The notes under the pieces: model-generated
What the model was told of the DNA's origin: nothing
Seen by the model: only the letters and a program-made list of their open reading frames with translations
Database searches by the model: none
Part shown: one piece after another, positions 1 through 14,074 of the stretch
Layout: every line of letters starts with the position of its first letter
How positions within the stretch are numbered: position 1 is the first letter of the stretch
NCBI RefSeq assembly: GCF_900115745.1
Contig: NZ_FOXP01000011.1
Coordinates: 62,001 to 126,000 of the forward strand
From: Sphingomonas rubra
GTDB taxonomy: Bacteria > Pseudomonadota > Alphaproteobacteria > Sphingomonadales > Sphingomonadaceae
Reading direction: 5' to 3'
Length of the DNA stretch: 64,000 nucleotides
Translations under genes and position numbers: made by a program

Positions 1-293
1 TCGCCCAGGCCTGGCGCGTCGGATCGGATCGCGAGGGCAGCGACCTCAAGGGCTTGGCACTGCCGGTGGACCGCCCCATATTGTCGTTGGCGCTGGGCCG
101 CGAGAATGTGGTACACATCGCGCTGACCGACCGCGCTGCGGCCAAGCGGGTGAGCGATGCGCTCGACCGGTGGCTGCACTTCATCGGACCAGAATCTTCT
201 CCCGCACCTTGCGACACGGCCTCGCAAGGCGCATCGGCGCCCCGTTCCGGCGGGGAGCCCGAGGCCGTGACGACGCACGAGGAATTTGAGTGA
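1..293 (+). CDS. YlxR/DUF448-type RNA-binding protein, C-terminal part (5' end outside window)
   Basis: The reading frame is open from the window edge, so only the last 96 or so codons are present. The visible part runs through a [19 protein letters not shown] segment and an [16 protein letters not shown] helix, which resembles the L7Ae-like C-terminal half of the two-domain alphaproteobacterial DUF448 proteins. The stop codon overlaps the infB GTG start (GTGA), as expected for the nusA-ylxR-infB arrangement, so translational coupling is likely. A role in RNA or ribosome binding is inferred from the family. The N-terminal YlxR domain cannot be seen. Confidence 0.75.
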
Positions 294-3112
294 GCGACAC
301 CGACAACGACAAGCCGAAGCTGGGCACGCGCGCGCCATTGGGCCTGCGCCGCACGGTCGAGACGGGGCAGGTGAAGCAGAGCTTCAGCCATGGCCGCTCG
401 AACACGGTGATCGTCGAGACCAAGAAGGCGCGGACGTTCCGTCGCCCGGGCGATCCCGCGCCCGCTGCCGAGGCGCCCGCCGCCCCGGCGCCCGTGCCCG
501 CACCGGCGGCGCCCGCTCCGGCTGCTCCCGCCCCGCGCCCCGCGCCGTCGAACGAGACCCCGCAGGAGCGCCAGGCCCGCATGCTGCGCGAGGCCGAGGA
601 CCAGCGCATGCACGCGCTGGAAGATGCGCGTCGTCGCGAGGAGGCCGACCGCGCCCGTGCCGCCGAGGAGGAGCGTGCCCGCGCTGCCGAGCGCGCGCGG
701 ATCGCCGCCGCGCCGCCGCCCGCCCCGGAGCCCGAGCCTGCGCCGCCGCCGGTCGAGGCGGCACCCGAGCCGACGCCTGCTCCCACGATCACCGTGGCGA
801 CGCCCGCCGGTCGCGGCTTCCGCCCCGTCGCGCGCCCCGAGATCCCCGCCGCGCCCGAGCCGGTCGCCGAGGTACCCGCCCCGGAACCGACACCCGCACC
901 GGTCGCCGCCGCGCCGGCCCCTGCGCCGACGCCGACGCCCGCCCCCGTGCGCGCCGCACCGCCGGCGGCGCCGGCGCCTACGGTGGAACTCGCCCGCGAT
1001 CCGTCGATGCCGGCGCCGCGCCGCTTCTCGCCGGTCGCCCGGCCCGAGATCCCGAAGCCGCAGCCCAAGCCCGCGCCGGCGCCCGCCCCCGCGGCGGCCG
1101 CACCGACGCCTGCCGCCGCCGGCGGCGCCTCGTCCGCGCCGCGCAGCTTCACCTCCGGCTCGGCCACGCCGCGCAACGCGCCGCCCAGCCGTCCGCAGCA
1201 GCGCGACCGCAAGGGTGACGAGCGTCGCGGCGGCAAGCTGACGGTCAACCGCGCGCTCGACGACGGTGCCCGCTCGCGCAGCCTTGCGGCGCTGAAGCGT
1301 GCCCGCGAGAAGGAAAAGCGCGGCTTCGGCGGCCCGCGCGAGGCGCAGGCCAAGCAGGTCCGCGACGTGCAGGTGCCCGACGCGATCACCGTGCAGGAGC
1401 TCGCCAACCGCATGGCGGAGAAGGGCGCCGACTTGGTCAAGACGCTGTTCAAGATGGGCATGCCCGTCACCATGACGCAGACGATCGACCAGGACACGGC
1501 CGAGCTGCTGGTGACCGAGTTCGGCCACAACATTGTCCGCGTGTCCGACAGCGACATCGACCTGGCGCTCGACACCACCGAGGACGCGGTCGAATCGCTG
1601 AAGCCGCGCCCGCCGGTGGTGACGATCATGGGCCATGTCGACCACGGCAAGACCTCGCTGCTCGACGCGCTGCGCGGCACCGACGTGGTGCGCGGCGAGG
1701 CCGGCGGCATTACCCAGCACATCGGTGCCTATCAGGTGACGCTGAAGGACAAGTCGAAGGTCACCTTCCTCGACACGCCCGGCCACGAGGCGTTCACCCA
1801 GATGCGCGCGCGCGGCGCCGACATCACCGACATCGTCGTGCTGACGGTGGCGGCGGACGACGGGCTGATGCCGCAGACGATCGAGGCCATCAACCACACC
1901 AAAGCGGCCGGCGTGCCGATGATCGTGGCCATCAACAAGATGGACAAGCACGAGGCGAACGCCCAGCGCGTCCGCGAGCGCCTGCTCGAGCATGAGGTGA
2001 TCGTCGAGGAGATGGGCGGCGAGACGCAGGACGTCGAGGTGTCCGCGCTCAAGAAGACCGGCCTCGACACGCTGATCGAGAAGATCCAGCTCCAGGCCGA
2101 ACTGCTCGAACTGCGCGCCAATCCCGATCGCTCGGCCGAGTGCACGGTGATCGAGGCGAAGCTCGACAAGGGTCGCGGGCCCGTCGCCACGGTGCTCGTC
2201 AATCGTGGCACGCTCAAGGTCGGTGACATCTTCGTCGTCGGCGCGGAGAGCGGCAAGGTCCGCGCGCTGGTCGACGACAAGGGTCGCCAGTTGAAGGAAG
2301 CCGGTCCGTCGATGCCGGTCGAGGTGCTGGGCCTGTCGGGCGTTCCGCAGGCAGGCGATCCGCTCCAGGTGGTCGAGAGCGAGGCGCGTGCACGCGAGGT
2401 CGCCGAGTACCGCCAGGGCGTGCTGACGCAGAAGCGCACCACCTCGGCCCCGGCCAGCCTGGAGACGATGTTCTCCGCGCTGCGCTCGAACCAGGCCAAG
2501 GAATATCCGCTGGTCGTGAAGGCGGATACGCAAGGGACCGTCGAGGCGATCGTCGCGTCGATCAACAAGATCTCGACCGACCTGATCCGCGCGCGCATCC
2601 TGCACTCGGGCGTCGGCGGCATCACCGAATCCGACGTGACGCTCGCCGGGGCTTCCGGCGCGCCGATCATCGGCTTCAACGTGCGGCCCAACGCCAAGGC
2701 GCGCGAGATCGCCGATCGGCAGAAGGTGGCGTTCAAATATTACGACGTCATCTACGACCTGACCGACGAGATCCGCGCCGGCATGGCAGGCGAGCTCGGC
2801 CCTGAGGCGTTCGAGACGGTGGTCGGCCGCGCCGAGATCCGCGAGGTCTTCTCGGCCGGCAAGACGGGTCGCGCCGCCGGTCTGCTCGTCACCGAGGGCG
2901 TCATCCGCAAGTCGCTCAAGGCGCGCATCACGCGCAACGACGTCATCATCTACCAGGGCGAGATCGCCTCGCTCCGCCGGTTCAAGGACGACGTGCCCGA
3001 GGTCCGCGCCGGTCTGGAGTGCGGCGTGACGTTCACGCAGAACTTCACCGACATCAAGGCGGGCGACTATCTCGAAACCTTCGAGGTCGAACTGCGCGAG
3101 CGGACCCTGTAA
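290..3112 (+). CDS. infB: Translation initiation factor IF-2
   Basis: A 940-residue GTPase that places initiator tRNA on the 30S subunit and promotes subunit joining. Residues 1-50 hold the basic N-terminal region. Residues about 55-300 are a long Ala/Pro-rich linker with charged helical stretches, typical of alphaproteobacterial IF2. The G domain begins near residue 440 with GHVDHGKT (about 448-455), then DTPGHEAF and NKMDK, followed by the beta-barrel and C-terminal tRNA-binding domains. The GTG start overlaps the stop of the upstream gene by 4 nt. It is the first complete gene of the infB-rbfA-truB-rpsO-pnp translation and RNA-decay cluster. Confidence 0.98.
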
Positions 3113-3118
3113 CAACCC

Positions 3119-3206
3119 GTCATGCCAGCGCAGGCTGGCATCTCCCTCCCGGGAGTGACCTCACCGTCGCTCCCGGGCACGAGACCCCAGCCTCCGCTGG
3201 GGTGAC
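3119..3206. repeat. Palindromic intergenic repeat between infB and rbfA
   Basis: Two nested hairpins (CATGCCAGC/GCTGGCATC and CCCAGC/GCTGGGGTGAC) fill most of the 111-bp gap. The CGTCATGCC and GGGGTGACG edges match the ends of other repeats in this window. It may form transcript structure between the two genes but does not look like a T-tailed terminator. Confidence 0.7.
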
Positions 3207-3223
3207 GCAGCTGAGGCGGCGTC

Positions 3224-3610
3224 ATGAACAAAGAACCACAGGAAAAATCCGTCCGCACGCTGCGCGTCGGCGAGCAGGTCCGCCATGTCCTCTCGGAAAT
3301 TCTCCAGCGCGGCGACGTGCACGACGAGACGCTGGCCAGGCACATGGTCTCCATTACCGAAGTACGCATGTCTCCCGATCTGCGCCATGCCACCGTGTTC
3401 GTGAAGCCGCTGCTCGGCCGGGATGAGGCGGCGGTGCTGAAGGCGTTGCGCCAGAATACCGCCTACCTCCAGCGCGAGGTCGCGCACCGCGTGCAGAACA
3501 AATACGCCGCCAAGCTCAAGTTCCTGGCGGACGAGAGCTTCGACGAGGGCAGCCATATCGACAGCCTTCTCCGCAAGCCGGAGGTCGCCCGCGACCTTGA
3601 CGAGGCGTGA
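3224..3610 (+). CDS. rbfA: Ribosome-binding factor A
   Basis: A 128-residue protein of the usual RbfA size, needed for 30S maturation and 16S rRNA 5' end processing. The N-terminal [19 protein letters not shown] helix, the [17 protein letters not shown] strand region and the [17 protein letters not shown] segment (the KH-like core of the family) are all visible. It lies downstream of infB, its normal neighbour, separated only by a palindromic repeat. Confidence 0.97.
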
Positions 3611-3631
3611 AGTAAGACGCATCTTACCGCC

Positions 3632-3904
3632 ATGGGCATCGAAATCACCATGTCGTCCAAGGGGCAGATCGTCATCCCCAAGGACGTCCGCGACGCGCTC
3701 GGCCTAAAGCCCGGCGGACGGCTGAGCCTGGAACGGCTCGGCAACCGCATCGTCCTGCAAGCCCCGCAACCCCCGCGCGAGCGGATCAGCTACGAGGAAT
3801 TTCGCCGGCGCGTGCCCAAATACGAGGGGCCGCCCGTCGCGGTGGAGGACATGACGGTCGATTTCGCCGGGCTCGTCCGATGGCGTGAACAGAACGGCGG
3901 ATGA
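3632..3904 (+). CDS. vapB: AbrB/SpoVT-type antitoxin (VapB-like)
   Basis: A 90-residue protein with a swapped-hairpin AbrB DNA-binding domain in its first half (MSSKGQIVIPKDVRDALGLKPGG). The C-terminal tail, rich in Arg, Glu and aromatics, is the part expected to wrap the toxin. ATG 3632 is taken as the start, with ATG 3650 as an alternative that would begin directly at the AbrB fold. Its stop overlaps the vapC ATG by 4 nt (ATGA), the classic antitoxin-toxin coupling. Autoregulation by the VapBC complex is inferred. The pair sits between rbfA and tdk, inside what is normally an unbroken translation operon. Confidence 0.88.
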   Translation: MGIEITMSSKGQIVIPKDVRDALGLKPGGRLSLERLGNRIVLQAPQPPRERISYEEFRRRVPKYEGPPVAVEDMTVDFAGLVRWREQNGG

Positions 3905-4293
3905 TCGGGGCCGATACCAACATCGTGCTGCGGTTGGTGTTGGACGATGACGACCGACAAGTGGACGCCGCCCGGCGGATCATGGCCGAGAAGCGGCTCG
4001 TGGTGCCCACGACGGTCATGCTCGAAGTCGGTTGGGTTCTCGCCAGCCGCTATCAGATGCCGCGCGCGCTGCTCGCGGATACGCTCGAAACGCTGATGGC
4101 GCTCGACGGGCTGGAGATTGCCCGCACCGACCTCGTCGGATGGGCCATCGACCGTTTTCGCGAAGGTGCCGACTGGGCGGACATGATTCACCTGGTCGCC
4201 TCCAGCAAGTTCGATGGCTTCCTGACGTTCGACAAGCGACTCGTCCGTGACGCTGGATACAAGGCTCCGGTGCCGATCGAGACTCTTTCCTGA
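3901..4293 (+). CDS. vapC: PIN-domain ribonuclease toxin (VapC-like)
   Basis: A 130-residue single-domain PIN nuclease. The acidic residues expected to bind Mg2+ are present: D5 (GADTN), E42 (MLEVGW), D91/D94 (ADWADMIHL) and D111 (TFDKRL). VapC toxins usually cleave tRNA or rRNA; the actual target cannot be read from the sequence. It overlaps vapB upstream by 4 nt, and its TGA shares one base with the tdk ATG (TGATG), so the toxin, antitoxin and thymidine kinase genes are probably co-transcribed and coupled. Confidence 0.9.
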   Translation: MIGADTNIVLRLVLDDDDRQVDAARRIMAEKRLVVPTTVMLEVGWVLASRYQMPRALLADTLETLMALDGLEIARTDLVGWAIDRFREGADWADMIHLVASSKFDGFLTFDKRLVRDAGYKAPVPIETLS

Positions 4294-4868
4294 TGGCCAA
4301 GCTCTATTTCTACTACGCATCCATGAACGCCGGGAAGTCGACCAACCTGCTCCAGGCCGACTTCAACTATCGCGAGCGCGGCATGGCGACGATGTTGTTC
4401 ACCGCCGCGATCGACGATCGGTTCGAGCACGGCACGATCGCCTCGCGCATCGGCCTGTCCGCCCCCGCGACCGCGTTCGATGCGAGTACCGACCTGGCAG
4501 CCTGCACGCTCGACAGACAGGCGCGGGAGACATTGAGTTGCGTGCTGGTCGACGAGGCGCAGTTCCTCACGCCCGGACAGGTGGATCAGCTCGCCGCGAT
4601 CGCCGACGATCACGGCATCCCTGTCCTCGCCTACGGCCTGCGCACCGATTTCCAGGGAGAACTCTTCCCCGGCTCGGCGCGCCTGCTCGCGCTCGCCGAC
4701 GCGCTGATCGAGATCAAGTCGGTCTGCCAGTGCGGGCGCAAGGCGACGATGAACCTGCGCGTCGATTCGCAAGGTCGCGCCATCGCCGAGGGCCGCCAGA
4801 CCGAGATCGGCGGCAACGACCGCTACGTCGCGCTCTGCCGTCGCCACCACCGCGAAGCACTCGCCTGA
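4293..4868 (+). CDS. tdk: Thymidine kinase (type II)
   Basis: A 191-residue enzyme that phosphorylates thymidine to dTMP for salvage. Walker A is MNAGKST (residues 11-17), the catalytic/Walker B region is VLVDEAQFLT (about residues 84-93), and a zinc-binding element is suggested by CQCGRK near residue 146 and the late Cys in ALCRRHH. Length and motif order fit the TK1-like family. It is joined to vapC upstream and truB downstream by TGATG junctions. It is not part of the usual infB-truB cluster, so it probably arrived with, or next to, vapBC. Confidence 0.96.
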   Translation: MAKLYFYYASMNAGKSTNLLQADFNYRERGMATMLFTAAIDDRFEHGTIASRIGLSAPATAFDASTDLAACTLDRQARETLSCVLVDEAQFLTPGQVDQLAAIADDHGIPVLAYGLRTDFQGELFPGSARLLALADALIEIKSVCQCGRKATMNLRVDSQGRAIAEGRQTEIGGNDRYVALCRRHHREALA

Positions 4869-5887
4869 TGCACGGCTGGATCATCCTCGACAAACCGCTC
4901 GGCCTCGGCTCGACGCAAGGGGTGTCCGCCGTGAAGCGGGCGCTGCGCCAAGGCGGCTACGGCAAGGCCAAGGTCGGCCACGGCGGCACGCTCGACCCGC
5001 TCGCGACCGGCGTGCTGCCGATCGCGGTGGGCGAGGCGACGAAGCTCGCCGGGCGGCTGCTCGACGGCGACAAGGTGTACGCCTTCACGATCCGCTTCGG
5101 CGAGACGACCGCGACGCTTGACGCCGAAGGGTCGGTGATCGCGACCAGCGACGTGCGCCCGACAGGGGCCGCGCTGGAGGCGGTCCTTTCCCAGTTCACC
5201 GGCCCCATCGATCAGCTTCCCCCCGCCTATTCCGCGCTGAAGGTGGACGGCCAGCGCGCCTACGACCTCGCCCGCGCCGGCGAGGAGGTGGTGCTGGCGA
5301 CGCGGAAAGTGACGATCCACTCGCTCCGTACCTCCCCGGAACGGGGAGGGGAACCATCGGCGCGAGCCGATGGTGGAGGGGTAGTTCCAGGCGCGCCGCT
5401 CGTGGCTGCCCCTCCACCCCTTGCTGACGCGAGCGGTCCCCCTCCCCGTGCCGGGGAGGATCTAGAAGAAACCACCCTCGTCGCTCACGTGTCAAAGGGC
5501 ACCTATATTCGCAGCCTCGCGCGTGACATCGCCGCCGCGCTCGGCACGGTCGGTCACGTCACGATGCTGCGCCGTGTGAAAGCCGGTCCGTTCGACCTGA
5601 CGCGGGCGATATCGCTGGACAAACTGGCCGAACTCGGGCAGGCGCGCGCCCTTGAACAGGCACTCCTGCCACTGAGGGCGGGGCTGGACGACATCCCGGC
5701 TCTGATCCTCGACCCCGACCAGGCAGGGGCGCTCCGCCAGGGGCGCGTTCTGGCCGGGATCGCCAGCCCCGACGGGGCGGCCTTCGCGATGCTCGACGAC
5801 ACGCCCGTGGCGCTGGTCGACGTGCTCGGCGGAGAAGTCCGCGTGGTCCGGGGCTTCAACCTCCCGATGTCGAAGGAAGAATCATGA
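4868..5887 (+). CDS. truB: tRNA pseudouridine(55) synthase with repeat-derived insertion
   Basis: Makes pseudouridine 55 in the T-loop of tRNAs. The catalytic Asp is D43 in [12 protein letters not shown], and the [13 protein letters not shown] motif follows later. The start is ATG 4868, overlapping the tdk stop (TGATG); a longer in-frame extension upstream is a shadow of tdk. At 339 residues it is about 30-40 longer than usual. The excess is a Pro/Gly/Arg-rich stretch at about residues 155-198, encoded by a palindromic repeat (5331-5460) whose relative lies between genes at 32845-32964. The insertion falls between the VTIHSL strand and the [10 protein letters not shown] strand, probably a surface loop, and the frame stays open. 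The stop overlaps the rpsO start by 4 nt. Confidence 0.95.
5331..5460. repeat. Palindromic repeat element inside truB
   Basis: About 130 bp with terminal arms CCTCCCCGG...ACGGGGAGG and CCTCCCCG...CCGGGGAGG, and an inner pair TGGAGGGG/CCCCTCCA. The same outer and inner arms, in the same order, occur in the intergenic element at 32845-32964. Here it is translated in frame as part of TruB. Confidence 0.88.
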
Positions 5888-6153
5888 CGATCACTGCCGA
5901 GCGCAAGACCGAACTCGTCCGCGAACACGCCCGCCAGGAAGGCGACACCGGTTCTCCGGAAGTGCAGGTCGCGATCCTGACCGAGCGCATCCGCAACCTG
6001 ACCGAGCATTTCAAGGGTCACAAGAAGGACAACCACTCGCGTCGCGGCCTGCTGATGATGGTCAACAAGCGGCGCTCGCTGCTCGACTATCTCCGCAAGT
6101 CGGACGGCCAGCGTTATCTCGATCTGATCGCGAAGCTCGGCCTTCGCAAGTAA
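5884..6153 (+). CDS. rpsO: 30S ribosomal protein S15
   Basis: An 89-residue protein, the exact family length, binding the central domain of 16S rRNA. The [17 protein letters not shown] and [19 protein letters not shown] motifs are diagnostic. The ATG overlaps the truB stop (ATGA). A strong GC hairpin follows at 6158-6183, ahead of pnp. Confidence 0.99.
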
Positions 6154-6157
6154 CGGC

Positions 6158-6183
6158 AAGGGCGGCCCCGCGGGGTCGCCCTT
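6158..6183 (+). terminator. Hairpin after rpsO
   Basis: A near-perfect 13-bp stem (AAGGGCGGCCCCG against CGGGGTCGCCCTT) starts 4 nt after the rpsO stop. The 3' side runs into CTT then TCTCGC, so the T-tract is weak. It may act as an attenuating terminator or as an RNA-processing site between rpsO and pnp. Confidence 0.7.
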
Positions 6184-6307
6184 CTCGCATGTGCCGTCTC
6201 CGCAATCCGGCGGGGAAGGCTACGGGGCGACAACTCGCCCCACACCGCCGCGGACCGGCTAAGTCCGCACCATAGGTCCTCCTCGCATCCGGCGTGGAGG
6301 TGAAGGA

Positions 6308-8674
<2,367 letters not shown>

Positions 8675-8698
8675 TCTCCGGCCATCTCGGCCACGATC

Positions 8699-8727
8699 GG
8701 GGGCTCGGCAGCAATGCCGGCCCCCTT
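8699..8727 (+). terminator. Rho-independent-type terminator after pnp
   Basis: GGGGGCTCGGCA pairs with TGCCGGCCCCC around a GCAA tetraloop, with one bulged T, followed by TT. It lies 25 nt past the pnp stop and immediately before the first 13-bp repeat of the Fic cassette. Confidence 0.8.
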
Positions 8728-8734
8728 GTCACAT

Positions 8735-8797
8735 AATCGATTTGCCACCGAAGCCGCCGCTGGAAATCGATTTGCCACTTCGGTAATCGTTTCGCCA
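8735..8797 (+). repeat. Left array of three 13-bp repeats upstream of the Fic gene
   Basis: AATCGATTTGCCA occurs exactly at 8735-8747 and 8765-8777, and as AATCGTTTCGCCA at 8785-8797. Start-to-start spacings are 30 and 20 bp. The last A of the third copy is the A of the Fic ATG. The array is mirrored beyond the other end of the gene (10295-10357). Confidence 0.9.
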
Positions 8798-10290
8798 TGG
8801 CCGAGGCATTTTCCACACGTACGCCCATCGGCCATATGTGGCTGCGCGAGCATTTCTCGCTCGCCGGTCCACGCCCCTATACCGAAAGCTACGTAGTGCA
8901 GGGCGCGCGCCGCATCGAGGTGACTGGCGCCCGAACGGTTGAACTCTACCCGCTGCGATATGCGACCGGCGACGACATCGTGGCGAACCTGCGTTTCGCC
9001 CTTCGCTACGAACCGATCGATCTGGGCACCCTGGTCGACGCGCTCGAACGCTCTCCCGATGTGCTGGCGACATGGGTCCGTGCCGAACCGACCGGCAGCT
9101 ACGCGCGTCGCGCCTGGTTCTTCTACGAGCATTTCACCGGGAAACGGCTGGATTTGCCCGATGCACCCACCAGCAATTACGTCCAGGCACTCGATCCCCG
9201 CCGCCATTTCGTCGCCCCGCGCCGCAATGTTCCCCGTCAGCGCGTGATCGACAATCTGCTGGGCGACAGCGGCATGTGTCCCATGGTGCGTCGAACCGAT
9301 CGGCTCGAAGCGCAGATCGGCACCCATATCGATGCCGAGGCTCGGACGATCATCGAGCGCTACGATCCCGCCATTCTCGCGCGTGCTGTCCGCTACCTCT
9401 TTACCAAGGAGACGCGATCGTCGTTCGCGATCGAGGGAGAGAACCCGAGCCCCGACAAGACGGAGCGTTTCGTCTCCGCGCTACGGTCGGCCGCAACCTT
9501 TTCCCCCGGTCGCGATGCGCTTATCCGACTCCAGAATGCGATCGTCGACCCGCGCTACGCGGCCACCGGCTGGCGAGACTTCCAGAACTTCGTCGGTGAG
9601 ACGACGATAGATTTTCGGGAAGAAGTTCATTTCATCTGCCCGCGGCCGGACGACGTCGGGGATTTGATGAACGGCTGGATGCGAATGGCGCATCGACTGC
9701 TAGCGGGTGGGGTGGAGCCGGTGATCGCGGCCGCGATCACGGCATTCGCGTTCGTCTTCATCCACCCGTTCGAGGACGGCAACGGACGCATCCACCGCTT
9801 CCTGATCCATAACGTGCTGAGCCGTTTGGGCTTCAGCCCCGACAGCCTGATCTTGCCGGTGTCCGCCGCCATTGTCCGCGACCAACGCCGATACGACGAG
9901 GTACTCGAAAGCTTCTCGCAACCTCTGCTCGAAGCGATCGATTGGCGGTGGACGTCCGAACGGACGATTTCGGTAACGCCTCCGACAGCGCACTTCTATC
10001 GGTTCTTCGATGCCACATTGTTCGCGGAATATCTGTACGATCGCGTGGTCGATACGGTTCGGACCGATCTGGGCGAGGAACTGGGCTTCCTGGCCGCATT
10101 CGATCGAGCCTTCGACGGCGTACGCCGAATCGTCGACATGCCCGATCGTCGCGCCAGCCTGCTCGTCCGCCTGATATTCCAGAACGGCGGTCGCCTGTCA
10201 CAAGCGAAGCGAGATCGGTTCCAAGAGCTTTCAGATGCTGAAATCGCCCTGATGGAAGGCGTGGTCCAAACGGCGATGCGGAGCGAATGA
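8797..10290 (+). CDS. Fic-domain protein (putative AMP transferase) with inhibitory-helix motif
   Basis: A 497-residue Fic-family protein. The catalytic loop is HPFEDGNGRIHR (from H323), a full match to HPFx(D/E)GNGRxxR, so nucleotide transfer, most often AMPylation of a protein hydroxyl, is expected. S209-x3-E213-G214 (SFAIEGE) matches the (S/T)xxxE(G/N) inhibitory motif placed before the Fic core, meaning the enzyme probably restrains itself and needs no separate antitoxin. The first 190 residues and the last 100 are not assigned; the C-terminal part could be a winged-helix region. ATG 8797 overlaps the third upstream repeat and has no clear Shine-Dalgarno. Base composition is lower in GC than neighbouring genes. 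The target protein is unknown. Confidence 0.9.
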   Translation: MAEAFSTRTPIGHMWLREHFSLAGPRPYTESYVVQGARRIEVTGARTVELYPLRYATGDDIVANLRFALRYEPIDLGTLVDALERSPDVLATWVRAEPTGSYARRAWFFYEHFTGKRLDLPDAPTSNYVQALDPRRHFVAPRRNVPRQRVIDNLLGDSGMCPMVRRTDRLEAQIGTHIDAEARTIIERYDPAILARAVRYLFTKETRSSFAIEGENPSPDKTERFVSALRSAATFSPGRDALIRLQNAIVDPRYAATGWRDFQNFVGETTIDFREEVHFICPRPDDVGDLMNGWMRMAHRLLAGGVEPVIAAAITAFAFVFIHPFEDGNGRIHRFLIHNVLSRLGFSPDSLILPVSAAIVRDQRRYDEVLESFSQPLLEAIDWRWTSERTISVTPPTAHFYRFFDATLFAEYLYDRVVDTVRTDLGEELGFLAAFDRAFDGVRRIVDMPDRRASLLVRLIFQNGGRLSQAKRDRFQELSDAEIALMEGVVQTAMRSE

Positions 10291-10294
10291 TTGA

Positions 10295-10357
10295 TGGCAG
10301 ATCGATTTTGCACGTGGGAAATCGCTTTAGAAAGCGGCCTACGATGGCAAATCGATT
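10295..10357 (-). repeat. Right, inverted array of three 13-bp repeats downstream of the Fic gene
   Basis: TGGCAGATCGATT (10295-10307), TGGGAAATCGCTT (10315-10327) and TGGCAAATCGATT (10345-10357) are reverse complements of the upstream repeat with 1, 2 and 0 mismatches. Spacings are 20 then 30 bp, the exact mirror of the left array (30 then 20). The array starts 4 nt after the Fic stop. Confidence 0.9.
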
Positions 10358-10366
10358 TTGGATGGT

Positions 10367-10394
10367 GGGGAGCTTCTGTTGCCCGGTGCTCCCC
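10367..10394. other. Hairpin A with 14-nt loop shared with hairpin B
   Basis: A perfect 7-bp stem GGGGAGC/GCTCCCC encloses the loop TTCTGTTGCCCGGT (10374-10387). The same loop is carried by hairpin B on a different stem. On the minus strand it lies 3' of the ssrA coding piece; on the plus strand it lies 3' of the Fic cassette. Confidence 0.7.
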
Positions 10395-10402
10395 GTACCG
10401 CT

Positions 10403-10432
10403 GGAATCCCCTTCTGTTGCCCGGTGGGGTCC
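10403..10432. other. Hairpin B with 14-nt loop shared with hairpin A
   Basis: GGA(AT)CCCC pairs with GGGGTCC (7 bp with a 2-nt bulge) around the identical loop TTCTGTTGCCCGGT (10412-10425). The stem sequence differs from hairpin A while both strands still pair. Confidence 0.65.
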
Positions 10433-10444
10433 GACCGCGCTATT

Positions 10445-10715
10445 TTGGAGTAACCTTAGGCCGTGAGGCCCTCAGTTACGCCGCAATCGCGAGTGCTTCG
10501 TTATCGTTGGCACTTGTGTAATGGGCCGTTGCGGTGGTCCCATTCCGAGCGAAAACAGCGCTTTTCAACACACGTCGATCCTAGTTCGGCCCCGTCAGAA
10601 ACGGTGTCCAGAAACACCACCTTATGGTGGAGCCGCCGGGTACTGCCCCCGGGTCCGCTGCGCCTATTGTACGCCGCAGTTTATCGCCATAGCCGGGTAA
10701 AACCCGACATTGCCG
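10445..10715 (-). ncRNA. ssrA: Transfer-messenger RNA, permuted two-piece form
   Basis: Read on the minus strand. The acceptor piece comes first and ends in GGCTCCACCA (CCA end at 10625), after a pseudoknot-like GTCGGGTTTTACCCGGC and the T-arm. A roughly 31-nt intervening segment (about 10594-10624) follows, then the coding piece starting GGGGCCGAAC at 10593. The tag reading frame at 10511-10476 encodes ANDNEALAIAA followed by TAA. The 7-bp acceptor stem forms between GGGGCCG and CGGCTCC and includes a G3:U70 pair, the alanyl-tRNA synthetase identity element. A plausible promoter, TTGCGC-17 bp-TATATC, lies at about 10718-10746. The exact outer ends are estimates. This acceptor-first layout is the known alphaproteobacterial circular permutation; the RNA rescues stalled ribosomes. 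Confidence 0.93.
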
Positions 10716-10783
10716 ATATAGGTGGCGGCGGGGCGGAGCGCAAACGCCTTTCGCTTGCCACATTGCGGCGGCATAGGAGGGGC

Positions 10784-11215
10784 ATGCTTACCCAGCGGTC
10801 CCGCTACGCGATGCGCGCGATGCTGCTCCTCGCCAAGGCGCCGGTCGGCGGCGCGCCCGTGCCGATGACGCGGATCGCGGCGGAGGCGAACGTGCCGCGC
10901 AAGTTCTTGGAACTGATCCTCGCCGACCTGCGCGACGCCGGCCTACTCCACAGCCACCGGGGCAAACACGGCGGCTACCGGCTGGCGAAGCCGACCCACC
11001 TCGTCTCGCTCGGCGACGTGATCCGCGTGATCGAGGGGCCGCTCGCGCTCGTTCCCTGCGTCAGTCGCACCGCCTATCGCCGGTGCGAAGATTGCGTGAG
11101 CGAGGCCGACTGCGCGATCCGCCACGCGATGATGCGCGTGCGCGACGAGACCGCGCGCATCTTGGACGGGACGAGCCTAGCCGACGCCACGGCGGAGGAA
11201 CTCGCCGTCGCCTGA
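10784..11215 (+). CDS. Rrf2-family transcriptional regulator, probable Fe-S sensor
   Basis: A 143-residue regulator with the Rrf2 winged helix at the N terminus (SRYAMRAMLLLAK, IAAEANVPRKFLELIL, SHRGKHGGYRLAKP). A Cys cluster at C92, C101, C104 and C110 is close in position to the three cluster ligands of IscR and RirA, so binding of an Fe-S cluster is likely. ATG 10784 is chosen for the strong AGGAGGGG site 2 nt upstream of GCATG; the longer open frame runs back into ssrA. It is divergent from ssrA and shares its promoter region. Whether it senses iron, cluster status or nitric oxide cannot be told. Confidence 0.9.
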   Translation: MLTQRSRYAMRAMLLLAKAPVGGAPVPMTRIAAEANVPRKFLELILADLRDAGLLHSHRGKHGGYRLAKPTHLVSLGDVIRVIEGPLALVPCVSRTAYRRCEDCVSEADCAIRHAMMRVRDETARILDGTSLADATAEELAVA

Positions 11216-11376
11216 CCGATCGACCCGAATCGCTGTCCTACAAGCCGGCGTTGTGGGATAAAGGCGTCGAGCATTGCTGCTCACGCTCTTTGTCAGTGCT
11301 GCAATCGAAAACGATCGCCCCGGAATGTTTCGTTCCAGGGGTCAATCGAGTCAAGCAATCGTGAACTTCCGCCGGC

Positions 11377-11856
11377 TTACGCCGCGGGCCTCGCCTTCAA
11401 CTCGTTCCTGATCTCCCGCAGCAACGCGATCTCGACCGGCTCGGGCGGCGGCGGCGCGGCGGCTTCCTCGGCCGCCTGCTGGTGGCGCAGCCTGGCCGCC
11501 TCGCGCTCGGCCAGCGCCGCGAGCTTGTTGACGCTCCGCACCATGGTGAAGATGATGAACGCGACGATCACGAAATTGACCACCTGGGTGATGAACTCGC
11601 CGTAGCCGAGCAGCGGCACCCCCGCCTTCTTCAACGCGGCATAGTCGGTCGACCCGCGCAAGCCCGCGGGCACTTCGCCCAGCACCACGAAATAGCTGGA
11701 GAAATCCAGCCCGCCGAAGATCCTGCCGATCACCGGCATGATGATGTCGTCGGTCAGCGAGGTGACGATCTTGCTGAACGCGGCGCCGATGATGACCGCC
11801 ACCGCCAGGTCGAGCACGTTGCCGCGCATGATAAAGGCGCGAAATTCCTTGAGCAT
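11377..11856 (-). CDS. mscL: Large-conductance mechanosensitive channel MscL
   Basis: A 159-residue inner-membrane channel that opens under hypo-osmotic stress. The N-terminal FRAFIMRGNVLDLAVAVIIGAAF segment (amphipathic helix and TM1) is diagnostic, and TM2 is the QVVNFVIVAFIIFTMV region. The charged C-terminal helix carries an Ala/Pro/Glu-rich insert. It stands alone, with a weak hairpin (CCCCGGAA/TTCCAGGGG, 11318-11342) downstream on its strand. Confidence 0.97.
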   Translation of the reverse strand: MLKEFRAFIMRGNVLDLAVAVIIGAAFSKIVTSLTDDIIMPVIGRIFGGLDFSSYFVVLGEVPAGLRGSTDYAALKKAGVPLLGYGEFITQVVNFVIVAFIIFTMVRSVNKLAALAEREAARLRHQQAAEEAAAPPPPEPVEIALLREIRNELKARPAA

Positions 11857-11959
11857 CGCCGCTCCCCTCGTTGGAAACCGTGATGCTAGGCGCGGATGGG
11901 GGTTTCGCCAAGCCGGAGACGTGTCCTATATGAGTAGGACAGATCATCCAGGAGCATCC

Positions 11960-12541
11960 ATGTCGCGCCGTATCGCCGTCACGCTCGCCCTCACCGTCCC
12001 ACTCGCCGCGTGCGGGATCAACAGCGTCCCGACCGCCGAGGAGAATGCCAAGGCGCGCTGGGCCGACGTCCAGAACCAGTATCAGCGCCGCGCCGACCTG
12101 ATCCCCAATCTCGTCGCCACCGTGAAGGCCGCGGGCGCGCAGGAGAAGGACGTGCTGGTCCAGGTGACGCAGGCGCGCGCCGCCGCCAACACCGTGCGCG
12201 TGTCCGGTGACGACCTGTCCGATCCCGCCAAGGTCCAGCAGTTCGAGCGTACGCAGGGTGCGCTCGGCCTGTCGCTCCAGCGGTTGCAGGAAGCCTATCC
12301 GGAGCTGCGCAGCCAGGGCAACTACACCACGCTGATGAGCCAGCTTGAGGGTACGGAGAACCGTATCTCGGTCGCGCGCAACGATTACAACCAGGCGGTG
12401 CAGGCGTACAACACGCGTATCCGCACCTTCCCCGACGCGGTCGGTGCACGCATCTTCTACGGCGCCAAGCCGCTCGTCCCGTTCCAGGCGACGCCCGGTG
12501 CGGAGACCGCGCCGACGGTGAACTTCGGCAACGCGGGCTGA
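11960..12541 (+). CDS. LemA family lipoprotein
   Basis: A 193-residue protein. ATG 11960 follows CCAGGAGCATCC and gives a lipoprotein signal ending LAAC (C18). The mature part is the helical LemA domain (RWADVQNQYQRRADLIPNLVATVK, then NDYNQAVQAYNTRIRTFPD). LemA proteins are membrane-tethered helical-bundle proteins of poorly defined role, usually encoded with TPM-domain proteins, as here. It is the first gene of a tightly packed lemA-TPM-TPM-NUDIX set. Confidence 0.94.
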   Translation: MSRRIAVTLALTVPLAACGINSVPTAEENAKARWADVQNQYQRRADLIPNLVATVKAAGAQEKDVLVQVTQARAAANTVRVSGDDLSDPAKVQQFERTQGALGLSLQRLQEAYPELRSQGNYTTLMSQLEGTENRISVARNDYNQAVQAYNTRIRTFPDAVGARIFYGAKPLVPFQATPGAETAPTVNFGNAG

Positions 12542-12542
12542 G

Positions 12543-13415
12543 GTGATCGGCCGCCTCGCCTGCCTGCTGCTGCTCCTGTTCGCCGCGGTGGGGGTGCAGG
12601 CGCAGACCTTTCCCCCGTTCACCGGCCTCGTCGTCGACGACGCCGACGTGCTGCCTCCTCAAGTGGAGGCGGCGCTCACCGCCAAGCTGGAAGCGCTGCA
12701 GCGCGACACCAAGCGTCAGCTGGTCGTGGCGACGATCCGCGACACGCAGGGCTACCCGCTCGAGGAATATGGCTATCGGCTGGGTCGGGCCTGGGGCGTC
12801 GGTCTGGGCGACGTCGACAATGGCGCGATCCTGTTCGTCGCGCCGAACAATCCCGCCGGGCAGCGCGGCCCACGGCTGGAGGTCGGGCGCGGGCTGGAGC
12901 CGGTGCTGACCGACGCGTGGTCGAGCGTGATGATCCGCGAACGGATGATGCCCCCACTCCGCGCCGGCGACCTGCCGGGCGCGCTGACCGCGGGTGCCGA
13001 CGCAGTGATCGCGCAGCTTCGCGCCGCGCCGGACGAGATGCAGGCCCGCACCGACGCCGCGGCCGCCACGTTCGACCGCGAGCATCGTCGCACCCCGTCG
13101 GGCGACGATGGCGATGCCACGGCGCTGATCTTCTGGGCGGTCGTCATGGGCGGCGTGTTCGTCGCGATGGCGTTCGGACGGCGCGGCGGGCGGCGAGGCG
13201 GCCGGCGTTTCCGCGGCGGCGGTGTCGATCCGGCCCTGCCGATCGTGCTGTGGAGCATCGCCAACGAGATCGGCCGTGGGCGCGGTGGTGGCGGCGGCTG
13301 GGCCGGCGGATCGGGCGGTTCCGGCGGCGGCAGCGCGGGCGGCTGGACCGACGGCGGCTTCTCCGGCGGGGGTGGCGGCGACTTCGGTGGCGGCGGCGCG
13401 TCGGGGGATTGGTGA
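12543..13415 (+). CDS. TPM-domain (YgcG-type) secreted or membrane protein
   Basis: A 290-residue protein with a GTG start one base after the lemA stop. A signal peptide (about residues 1-20, ending VQAQ) precedes a TPM domain at about 22-165, with FTGLVVDDADVLPP, VVATIRDTQGYPLEEYGYRLGRAWGVG and NGAILFVAPNN. A membrane segment lies near residue 200, and the tail is almost pure Gly/Ser, ending GGGGASGDW. The same layout is seen in YgcG-like proteins that pair with LemA. A phosphatase or chaperone role has been suggested for TPM domains, but none can be assigned here. Confidence 0.92.
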   Translation: MIGRLACLLLLLFAAVGVQAQTFPPFTGLVVDDADVLPPQVEAALTAKLEALQRDTKRQLVVATIRDTQGYPLEEYGYRLGRAWGVGLGDVDNGAILFVAPNNPAGQRGPRLEVGRGLEPVLTDAWSSVMIRERMMPPLRAGDLPGALTAGADAVIAQLRAAPDEMQARTDAAAATFDREHRRTPSGDDGDATALIFWAVVMGGVFVAMAFGRRGGRRGGRRFRGGGVDPALPIVLWSIANEIGRGRGGGGGWAGGSGGSGGGSAGGWTDGGFSGGGGGDFGGGGASGDW

Positions 13416-14074
13416 TGCGCCTGACGGCCGAGGATCACACGCTCGTCACCGCCGCGGTCGCCGCCGCGGAACGAGGGACGAACGGCGAGATCGTGACGAT
13501 CGTATCGCGCTCGTCGGACGCGTATCACGACGCCGCCCTGCACTGGACGATCCTGGCGATGCTGCTGGTGCCGGCGCTGCTCGCCTTCTCCCCCGCCCTC
13601 GTCCACGTCGCCTTCGATGACGGAAAGATCGCGCCGTCGACGGCCGCGCTGCTGACGTCGATGCTGGTGATGCAGGGCGTCGCCTTCATCCTCGTCCGGG
13701 CGGCGCTGTCCTATCGCCCATGGCGGCTGGCTCTGACGCCTCGCGCCACCAAGGCGCGGCGGGTGCGCGCGCGGGCGCTCGCCCTGTTCGCCGCCGCCGC
13801 CGAGCACCGCACCGCTGGCCGCACCGGCGTGCTGCTCTACCTGTCGATGGAGGAGCGCCGGGCCGAGATCATCGCCGACGCCGCGATCCACGGCCGCGTC
13901 TCCGCGGACGTTTGGGGCGAGGCGATGGCGGCGATGATCCCCGAGCTGCGCGCCCGCCGCCCCGGCGCCGGCATGGCCGCGGCGGTGGCGAGGATCGGCG
14001 CGGTGCTGGCCGAGCATTTCCCCAGAACGGAGAACGACGTGAACGAACTTCCCGACCGGCTGATCGAGCTGTGA
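13415..14074 (+). CDS. Second TPM-domain membrane protein
   Basis: A 219-residue protein whose ATG overlaps the preceding stop (TGATG). The N-terminal LTAEDHTLVTAAVAAAERGTNGEIVTIV region begins the TPM fold. Two membrane segments follow (about 47-65 and 80-100), then the second half of the domain (RTGVLLYLSMEERRAEIIADAAIHGRV), ending in a short acidic tail. It lacks a signal peptide and the Gly-rich tail of its neighbour. The two TPM proteins probably work together with LemA at the inner membrane. Its stop overlaps the GTG of the NUDIX gene. Confidence 0.88.
   Translation: MRLTAEDHTLVTAAVAAAERGTNGEIVTIVSRSSDAYHDAALHWTILAMLLVPALLAFSPALVHVAFDDGKIAPSTAALLTSMLVMQGVAFILVRAALSYRPWRLALTPRATKARRVRARALALFAAAAEHRTAGRTGVLLYLSMEERRAEIIADAAIHGRVSADVWGEAMAAMIPELRARRPGAGMAAAVARIGAVLAEHFPRTENDVNELPDRLIEL

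What the first reader, a model, noticed from the sequence alone, without database searches (positions are those of the whole stretch)
8735..10357. Fic gene bracketed by mirror-image triple repeats (30/20 bp left, 20/30 bp right)
Six copies of AATCGATTTGCCA (0-2 mismatches) flank the Fic gene: three forward copies end at its start codon, and three reverse-complement copies begin 4 nt after its stop. Spacing is exactly mirrored: 17- and 7-bp gaps on the left, 7- and 17-bp gaps on the right. The spacer sequences match much less well than the 13-mers, so this is unlikely to be a simple duplication. Promoter operators would not need a mirrored set behind the gene. The pattern resembles transposon ends with several recombinase-binding sites, which would make this a roughly 1.6-kb single-gene cassette moved in trans. 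An alternative is a DNA-looping autoregulatory circuit bound at both ends, perhaps by the Fic protein itself. I saw no clear target-site duplication.
Basis: partly seen in the sequence, partly recalled or inferred. Interest (0 to 1): 0.82.

Follow-up and report, generated by a model that had tools for sequence, protein, structure and literature searches.

The report
Fic toxin-like gene bracketed by its operators
A lone Fic-type enzyme gene carries a three-part DNA pattern that its distant relatives also have in front of the gene, and here a second, mirror-image copy sits behind it, which fits self-control of the gene better than a jumping element.

Summary
In detail: six 13-mers, spaced 30/20 bp before and 20/30 bp after a 497-aa Fic gene. 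The cassette reading is not supported. A three-site unit with the same 29-30/20-bp spacing lies before the gene, often running into it, in most homologues tested: 47 of 57 at 1% or better against shuffles, 11 of 12 further plasmid loci and 3 of 4 at about 33% identity. Hosts include Proteobacteria and Bacteroidota. Two tandem upstream units are common (36 of 57, lenient score); the window lineage has one upstream and one inverted behind the stop. Of 52 homologues tested, only the window and two Xanthobacter relatives, at one shared locus, have the inverted unit; a fourth close relative lacks it. The protein matches PADLOC's phage-defence candidate PDC-S24 over its length; its predicted fold is nearest to CbFic2, a published DNA-binding Fic protein. 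Best reading: a self-contained, self-repressing Fic enzyme whose paired operators here bracket the gene. Binding by Fic itself is inferred, not shown. No target duplication over 3 bp and no second genomic copy was found.

The parts
8735..8747 (+). left unit, site A
8765..8777 (+). left unit, site B (30 bp after A)
8785..8797 (+). left unit, site C (20 bp after B); last base is the A of the start codon
8797..10290 (+). Fic gene, 497 aa; full-length match to PADLOC PDC-S24
8821..9261 (+). N-terminal domain (residues 9-155), no Pfam match; weak resemblance to AbiEi-type antitoxins (Rv2827c Z 6.5, AbiEi Z 3.6)
9421..9441 (+). SFAIEGE (209-215), class II inhibitory motif [S/T]xxxE[G/N] (motif recalled)
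   Evidence: columns 209-215 invariant in 12 of 12
9763..9798 (+). Fic catalytic motif HPFEDGNGRIHR (323-334)
10009..10287 (+). C-terminal region (405-497); in the model it is aligned to CbFic2, which ends in a winged helix
10295..10307 (-). right unit, site C
10315..10327 (-). right unit, site B
10345..10357 (-). right unit, site A
10403..10747 (-). ssrA (alpha tmRNA), convergent neighbour; not part of the unit
   Evidence: by ARAGORN gives 10385-10720

Best explanation
The arrays are operators of a single-gene, self-regulating Fic enzyme of the PDC-S24 family. Each operator is one unit of three direct sites (A, 30 bp, B, 20 bp, C), so that the sites face about the same side of the DNA. The Fic protein (N-terminal domain, self-inhibited Fic domain, C-terminal winged helix) binds the units cooperatively and represses its own transcription; the left unit's site C lies on the start codon. 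Much of the family has two tandem units, one upstream and one over the first codons. In the window lineage the second unit stands just behind the stop in inverted orientation, so two bound units can be bridged across the gene, by a loop of about 1.5 kb or by pairing of arrays as in iteron handcuffing. Shown: sites, spacing, family-wide occurrence, and position. Inferred: that a protein binds them, that it is Fic, that the effect is repression, and the bridging.
For: Upstream self-similarity peaks at lags 20 (36 of 50 loci with at least 10/13 matches; 0 of 50 inside the gene), 29-30 (12 and 16; in-gene 0 and 6) and 49-50 (13 and 14; in-gene 0 and 1); no other lag from 14 to 59 exceeds 5 of 50. 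Upstream three-site unit: 47 of 57 homologues at 1% or better against 200 dinucleotide shuffles, 39 of them with none; 49 of 57 above all in-gene windows; 11 of 12 new plasmid loci and 3 of 4 at about 33% identity with at most 1 of 100 shuffles; 3 of 3 above 100 shuffles (L146-L148). Second upstream unit: 36 of 57, 10 of 12 new loci, against in-gene windows only. In 7 of the 12 new loci read for this, sites B and C of the unit over the start codon lie in different reading frames, so they are not a protein repeat. Inverted downstream unit in the window and both Xanthobacter loci (0 of 200 shuffles each), at p under 0.01 in none of the other 49. Site sequence changes with the Fic protein (Mantel r 0.44, p 0.0005, 45 genes). 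Fold: best match CbFic2, Z 24.7, rmsd 3.2, 294 aligned, model 24-497. Published Fic proteins with a C-terminal HTH repress their own promoter (CccR) or are stimulated by DNA binding (CbFic2). No shared neighbour gene seen by eye in 21 annotated loci.
Against: No binding data. Motif-protein covariation is expected for any linked cis DNA, and neither the N- nor the C-domain distance explains the motif beyond the Fic core (p 0.18 each). No consensus promoter was found at the left unit, and only 3 of 52 first units show a clear promoter around site B. 10 of 57 homologues miss the 1% level, among them L017, L012, L058, L062 and L080 clearly. The downstream unit rests on two independent lineages, since the two Xanthobacter loci are syntenic; a fourth close relative, L149 (68%, contig-edge fragment), lacks it. 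The Xanthobacter right units are not significant by self-similarity alone (11 and 44 of 200 shuffles reach them); they pass only against site profiles of their own or the clade's left sites (0 of 200; 0 of 300). The C-terminal region is covered by few of the structures compared.
Confidence: 0.6

Rival explanations
1. The arrays are the ends of a mobile single-gene cassette moved in trans by a recombinase.
For: Mirrored multi-site ends as in some transposons (recalled); gene is rare and patchy (4 of 298 genomes of the family, 32 of 385 of the class, own genome included) and poorer in GC (62% against 70% for the window); the right array ends next to the point, about 10360-10365, where DNA likeness to relatives' ssrA flanks stops.
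Against: The same unit is on the 5' side without a significant inverted partner in 49 of 52 homologues. Fic is the only gene recognised between the arrays, no adjacent direct repeat over 3 bp, single copy. The paired-site pattern occurs exactly only in the own genome among 151 of the genus, with two 2-mismatch hits elsewhere. Two Xanthobacter species keep it at one syntenic place.
Confidence: 0.07
2. The units are operators bound by another, host-encoded regulator, not by Fic.
For: No binding evidence names the protein; many host regulators bind helically phased direct repeats (recalled).
Against: The site sequence follows the Fic sequence, though linked DNA would do so anyway; the pattern is found nowhere else in the own genome; the units go with the gene in hosts of more than one phylum. 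Two paralogues of one genome look to have different repeats, but the second set is by eye and its automatic score is not convincing (7 of 200 shuffles, at another place).
Confidence: 0.22
3. The downstream unit acts on its own, as a roadblock against transcription from the convergent ssrA side or as an antisense operator, without contact to the left unit (compatible with the first part of the best explanation).
For: It points against the gene and lies between fic and the 3' end of ssrA.
Against: In Xanthobacter the neighbourhood differs (no DNA match to the window outside the gene), yet the inverted unit is present.
Confidence: 0.25
4. The repeats act in RNA, for example as an antitoxin RNA or a structured leader.
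For: Type III toxin-antitoxin systems have repeats before the toxin gene (recalled).
Against: Spacing is close to whole DNA turns, sites occur in both orientations around the gene, and in the window the last left site ends on the start codon. Not tested by RNA folding here.
Confidence: 0.04

Closest known systems
CccR, Fic-HTH toxin and autorepressor (PMC9755527, passages read)
   Same: Fic domain plus C-terminal DNA-binding domain; represses its own promoter
   Different: Binds inverted repeats 26 bp apart near -35 and -10 as a dimer; here three direct sites at 30/20 bp, often two units, and a further N-terminal domain
CbFic2 (PMC10628234, passages read)
   Same: Nearest solved fold; class II Fic with C-terminal winged helix; activity stimulated by DNA
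   Different: Has DUF4172 N-terminus; tested with random DNA, no specific site named in the passages; our family gives no DUF4172 match in 12 of 12
PADLOC PDC-S24, phage-defence candidate
   Same: Full-length profile match (residues 8-495, E 1.3e-176)
   Different: The database entry carries no description, and no paper in the library holds the name
AbiEi antitoxin (PMC3985639, passages read)
   Same: Negative autoregulator of a phage-defence toxin operon; weak fold likeness to our N-terminal domain (Z 3.6; homologue Rv2827c Z 6.5)
   Different: Separate antitoxin gene, two 23-bp inverted repeats; likeness too weak for membership
Iteron arrays of plasmid replicons (recalled)
   Same: Direct, helically phased repeats bound on one face; arrays may pair
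   Different: Replication control, different protein; analogy only

Membership tests
PDC-S24 (PADLOC) | full-length profile match | tested here: met
   E 1.3e-176, profile 4-490 of 497
PDC-S24 (PADLOC) | stand-alone gene without conserved partner (reading of the S in the name as single-gene is recalled) | tested here: met
   window: pnp and ssrA neighbours; no shared neighbour by eye in 21 annotated loci; not a statistical test
PDC-S24 (PADLOC) | anti-phage activity | not testable with these tools
   candidate only; needs phage challenge
Class II Fic AMP-transferase | HPFx[D/E]GNGRxxR motif | tested here: met
   residues 323-334; Pfam Fic E 2.5e-13
Class II Fic AMP-transferase | inhibitory [S/T]xxxE[G/N] before the Fic core | tested here: met
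   SFAIEG 209-214, invariant in 12 of 12; motif definition recalled
Fic-winged-helix autorepressors (CccR type) | C-terminal winged helix | tested here: inconclusive
   predicted model aligns to CbFic2 over 24-497; no Pfam winged-helix hit in 12 of 12
Fic-winged-helix autorepressors (CccR type) | inverted-repeat operator bound by a dimer | tested here: not met
   each unit is three direct repeats; the inverted pair is two units about 1.5 kb apart
Fic-winged-helix autorepressors (CccR type) | DUF4172 N-terminal domain | tested here: not met
   0 of 12 members, Pfam
Fic-winged-helix autorepressors (CccR type) | protein binds and represses own promoter | not testable with these tools
   needs gel shift and reporter
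Insertion sequence or cassette moved in trans | target-site duplication | tested here: not met
   longest adjacent match 3 bp
Insertion sequence or cassette moved in trans | copies at several places, with or without the gene | tested here: not met
   one place in the own genome; 1 exact in 151 genomes of the genus, two more with 2 mismatches
Insertion sequence or cassette moved in trans | clean empty site in a close relative | tested here: inconclusive
   no relative read has flanks like the window's on both sides; three relatives with ssrA 0.8-1.3 kb after pnp hold no Fic there
Type II toxin-antitoxin (FicTA type) | adjacent small antitoxin gene | tested here: not met
   little room beside the arrays between pnp and ssrA; ORFs under 80 aa were not listed
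AbiEi-like domain | fold match of the N-terminal domain | tested here: inconclusive
   Rv2827c Z 6.5, rmsd 5.2, 152 aligned; AbiEi Z 3.6; Foldseek E at best 0.13

The most novel reading that the evidence does not exclude
The arrays are the off-switch of the enzyme itself: Fic is held inactive while docked on its two three-site units and is released, and starts to AMPylate, when the DNA around the gene is degraded, replicated or otherwise disturbed, for instance by a phage. The gene would then be a one-gene defence system with a DNA antitoxin, and in this lineage the two docking units clamp the gene from both sides.
Probability: 0.1. Interest if true: 0.85.

Novelty: new variant of a known kind. 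Interest (0 to 1): 0.55.

Why it matters
A widespread Fic family, known to the libraries used here only as a phage-defence candidate, turns out to carry a conserved and very regular array that can be read straight from DNA. That gives a direct handle on how a lone toxin-like enzyme without an antitoxin gene may keep itself in check, and the bracketed form offers a simple test of whether two operators talk to each other across a gene.

Tried and rejected
Transposon ends: rejected for the reasons in the rivals. Integration at the 3' end of ssrA: the right array stops 45 bp before the Rfam tmRNA end; no duplicated ssrA end was seen at the left edge, but one search compared short flanks only. Promoter built into the unit (-35, site B as spacer, -10 on site C): attractive by eye in a few loci, but only 3 of 52 pass, so dropped as a general claim. 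Downstream inverted units: L115, L070, L072 and L064 had z over 3 against in-gene windows but not p under 0.01 against shuffles, so judged composition effects; among 16 further loci the lowest are L129 (5 of 200 shuffles) and L141 (10 of 200), not convincing. Forward downstream units reached p under 0.01 in L001, L056 and L075; for L001 this comes from the palindromic core. Second upstream units were compared with in-gene windows only, which differ in composition, so 36 of 57 may be too high; another scoring finds two units in 31 of 52 genes. Paralogue test: L120's repeats were read by eye and its automatic score is not convincing. Domain-wise covariation did not single out a DNA-binding domain. 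Phage records: no match. N-terminal domain fold: no clear match. More relatives above 60%: the order and family searches gave one fragment, L149. Rows dropped: L007 and L077 (N-terminus missing or at a locus edge); two more genes (stop in the extrapolated frame) and five near-identical ones. The 57 include the window itself and near-duplicates (L010/L011/L014, L019/L023, L056/L057, L115/L116).

Full report
What is there. They bracket an open reading frame of 497 aa (8797-10290) with a Fic catalytic motif HPFEDGNGRIHR and the class II inhibitory motif SFAIEGE. The 13-mer with at most one mismatch occurs nowhere else in the 3.2-Mb genome. The gene has 62% GC against 70% for the window, so it looks acquired.

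The left array is a family feature. Homologues were taken from genome searches, named contigs, plasmids and viral contigs. In 50 loci, self-similarity before the gene peaks at lags of 20, 29-30 and 49-50 bp: 36 of 50 loci have at least 10 of 13 matches at lag 20 (0 of 50 inside the gene, 1 of 50 behind it), 12 and 16 at lags 29 and 30 (0 and 6 inside), 13 and 14 at lags 49 and 50 (0 and 1 inside); no other lag between 14 and 59 exceeds 5 of 50. Scored as a unit of three sites (29 or 30, then 20 bp), 47 of 57 homologues reach 1% or better against 200 dinucleotide shuffles, 39 of them with no shuffle as good; 49 of 57 exceed every in-gene window. Twelve further plasmid loci all exceed the in-gene windows, two narrowly or weakly (L134 by one point, L123 with 3 of 100 shuffles), 11 of 12 with at most 1 of 100 shuffles. 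Of four loci at about 33% identity, those from Pseudomonas, Komagataeibacter and Polaromonas pass the shuffles and that from Pantoea does not (14 of 100). Three more at about 50% pass 100 shuffles. The hosts that pass include alpha-, beta- and gammaproteobacteria and Bacteroidota (L008, L132; L009 only at 8 of 200); of two Deinococcus loci one fails and one is marginal (3 of 200). The common site is close to TAATCGTTTTTCA (83 units in 52 genes); the window's AATCGATTTGCCA is its local form.

Two units are common. A second unit upstream has z over 3 in 36 of 57, and exceeds in-gene controls in 10 of 12 new plasmid loci; these controls are in-gene windows, not shuffles. In 8 of those 12 loci the two units start 106-122 bp before and 11-27 bp before the annotated start, so the second runs over the start codon into the gene. 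In seven of them that were read, sites B and C lie in different reading frames, as a 20-bp step must give, so they are kept as DNA, not as a protein repeat. The window and the two Xanthobacter relatives (69% identity) show no second unit upstream.

The right array is real but restricted. Against dinucleotide shuffles, an inverted unit behind the stop is found in the window, L005 and L006 (0 of 200 shuffles each) and at p under 0.01 in none of the other 49 of 52 genes tested, nor in 16 further loci (lowest 5 of 200). The two Xanthobacter loci are syntenic, so this is two independent lineages. Their right units pass only against left-site profiles (own; the clade's), not by self-similarity alone, and a further close relative, L149 (68%, cut by a contig end), has none. 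Searches of 397 genomes of the order of Xanthobacter and 246 of the window's order found no more close members at E 1e-140.

Mobile element or not. The longest adjacent direct repeat at the array edges is 3 bp. Fic is the only gene recognised between the arrays. Among 151 genomes of the genus the two-site pattern occurs exactly only here; two others match with 2 mismatches. DNA likeness to relatives' ssrA flanks stops at about 10360-10365, next to the right array. Beyond that point the 29 relatives read fall into several unlike sorts, some shared among them, none like the window (by eye). After pnp, the 29 relatives read mostly keep a terminator-like hairpin and then differ (by eye). In three relatives ssrA lies 0.8-1.3 kb after pnp, and no Fic is encoded in those stretches. 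No clean empty site could be read. The gene has probably travelled, but the arrays are better explained as its operators than as its ends.

The protein. It matches PADLOC PDC-S24 over residues 8-495 (E 1.3e-176); the library holds no description, and the name is in none of the papers searched. A confident model (pLDDT 87.7) is nearest to CbFic2, Z 24.7, rmsd 3.2, 294 residues aligned from 24 to 497, followed by other Fic structures including SoFic. CbFic2 ends in a winged helix, which suggests one here; few of the structures compared cover this region. The N-terminal domain folded alone has only weak matches, among them two AbiEi-type antitoxins (Rv2827c Z 6.5, AbiEi Z 3.6), within the range of chance.

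Mechanism. CccR, a Fic protein with a C-terminal HTH, represses its own promoter through it (PMC9755527, passages), and CbFic2 is stimulated by DNA binding (PMC10628234, passages). A class II Fic system is reported as functional against coliphage T5 in a passage on SoFic systems (PMC11514479). With a lone gene, a probable built-in DNA-binding region, and sites that follow the gene family (Mantel r 0.44, p 0.0005 in 45 genes), self-binding is the simplest reading. The covariation is weak proof, since linked DNA drifts with its gene, and it did not point to a domain. Two paralogues in one genome look to have different repeats, but the second set is by eye and does not stand out in the automatic score. 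What the inverted right unit does is open: bridging with the left unit is favoured because two units are common in the family, but a stand-alone roadblock is possible.

Literature. Searches for Fic with operators, repeats, autoregulation, AbiEi, PDC names and own-promoter binding listed CccR and CbFic2 as the nearest cases; no listed title or abstract start mentions a three-site array or PDC-S24. The library lacks most subscription journals and preprints, and only passages of four papers were read.

Verdict.

Noticed in passing
L021 (Deinococcus psychrotolerans plasmid), 1-7452: The Fic gene sits between the S and R genes of a type I restriction system that also holds a MazF pair.
   Followed up: no
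window 10373-10426: A 16-base direct repeat CTTCTGTTGCCCGGTG (10373 and 10411) at the 3' side of ssrA is kept, with small changes, in many relatives of the genus, so it is probably part of the permuted tmRNA region.
   Followed up: partly
   Followed up: partly
L124 (Phaeobacter plasmid), 1-13464: Fic gene next to TniQ, TniB and Mu-type transposase genes; an AbiEii-type toxin gene lies a few kb off.
   Followed up: no
genus relatives, ssrA 3' flank (L084-L112): Beyond the conserved 3' flank of ssrA the 29 relatives read carry several unlike sequences, some shared by a few genomes, as at a variable spot (by eye).
   Followed up: no
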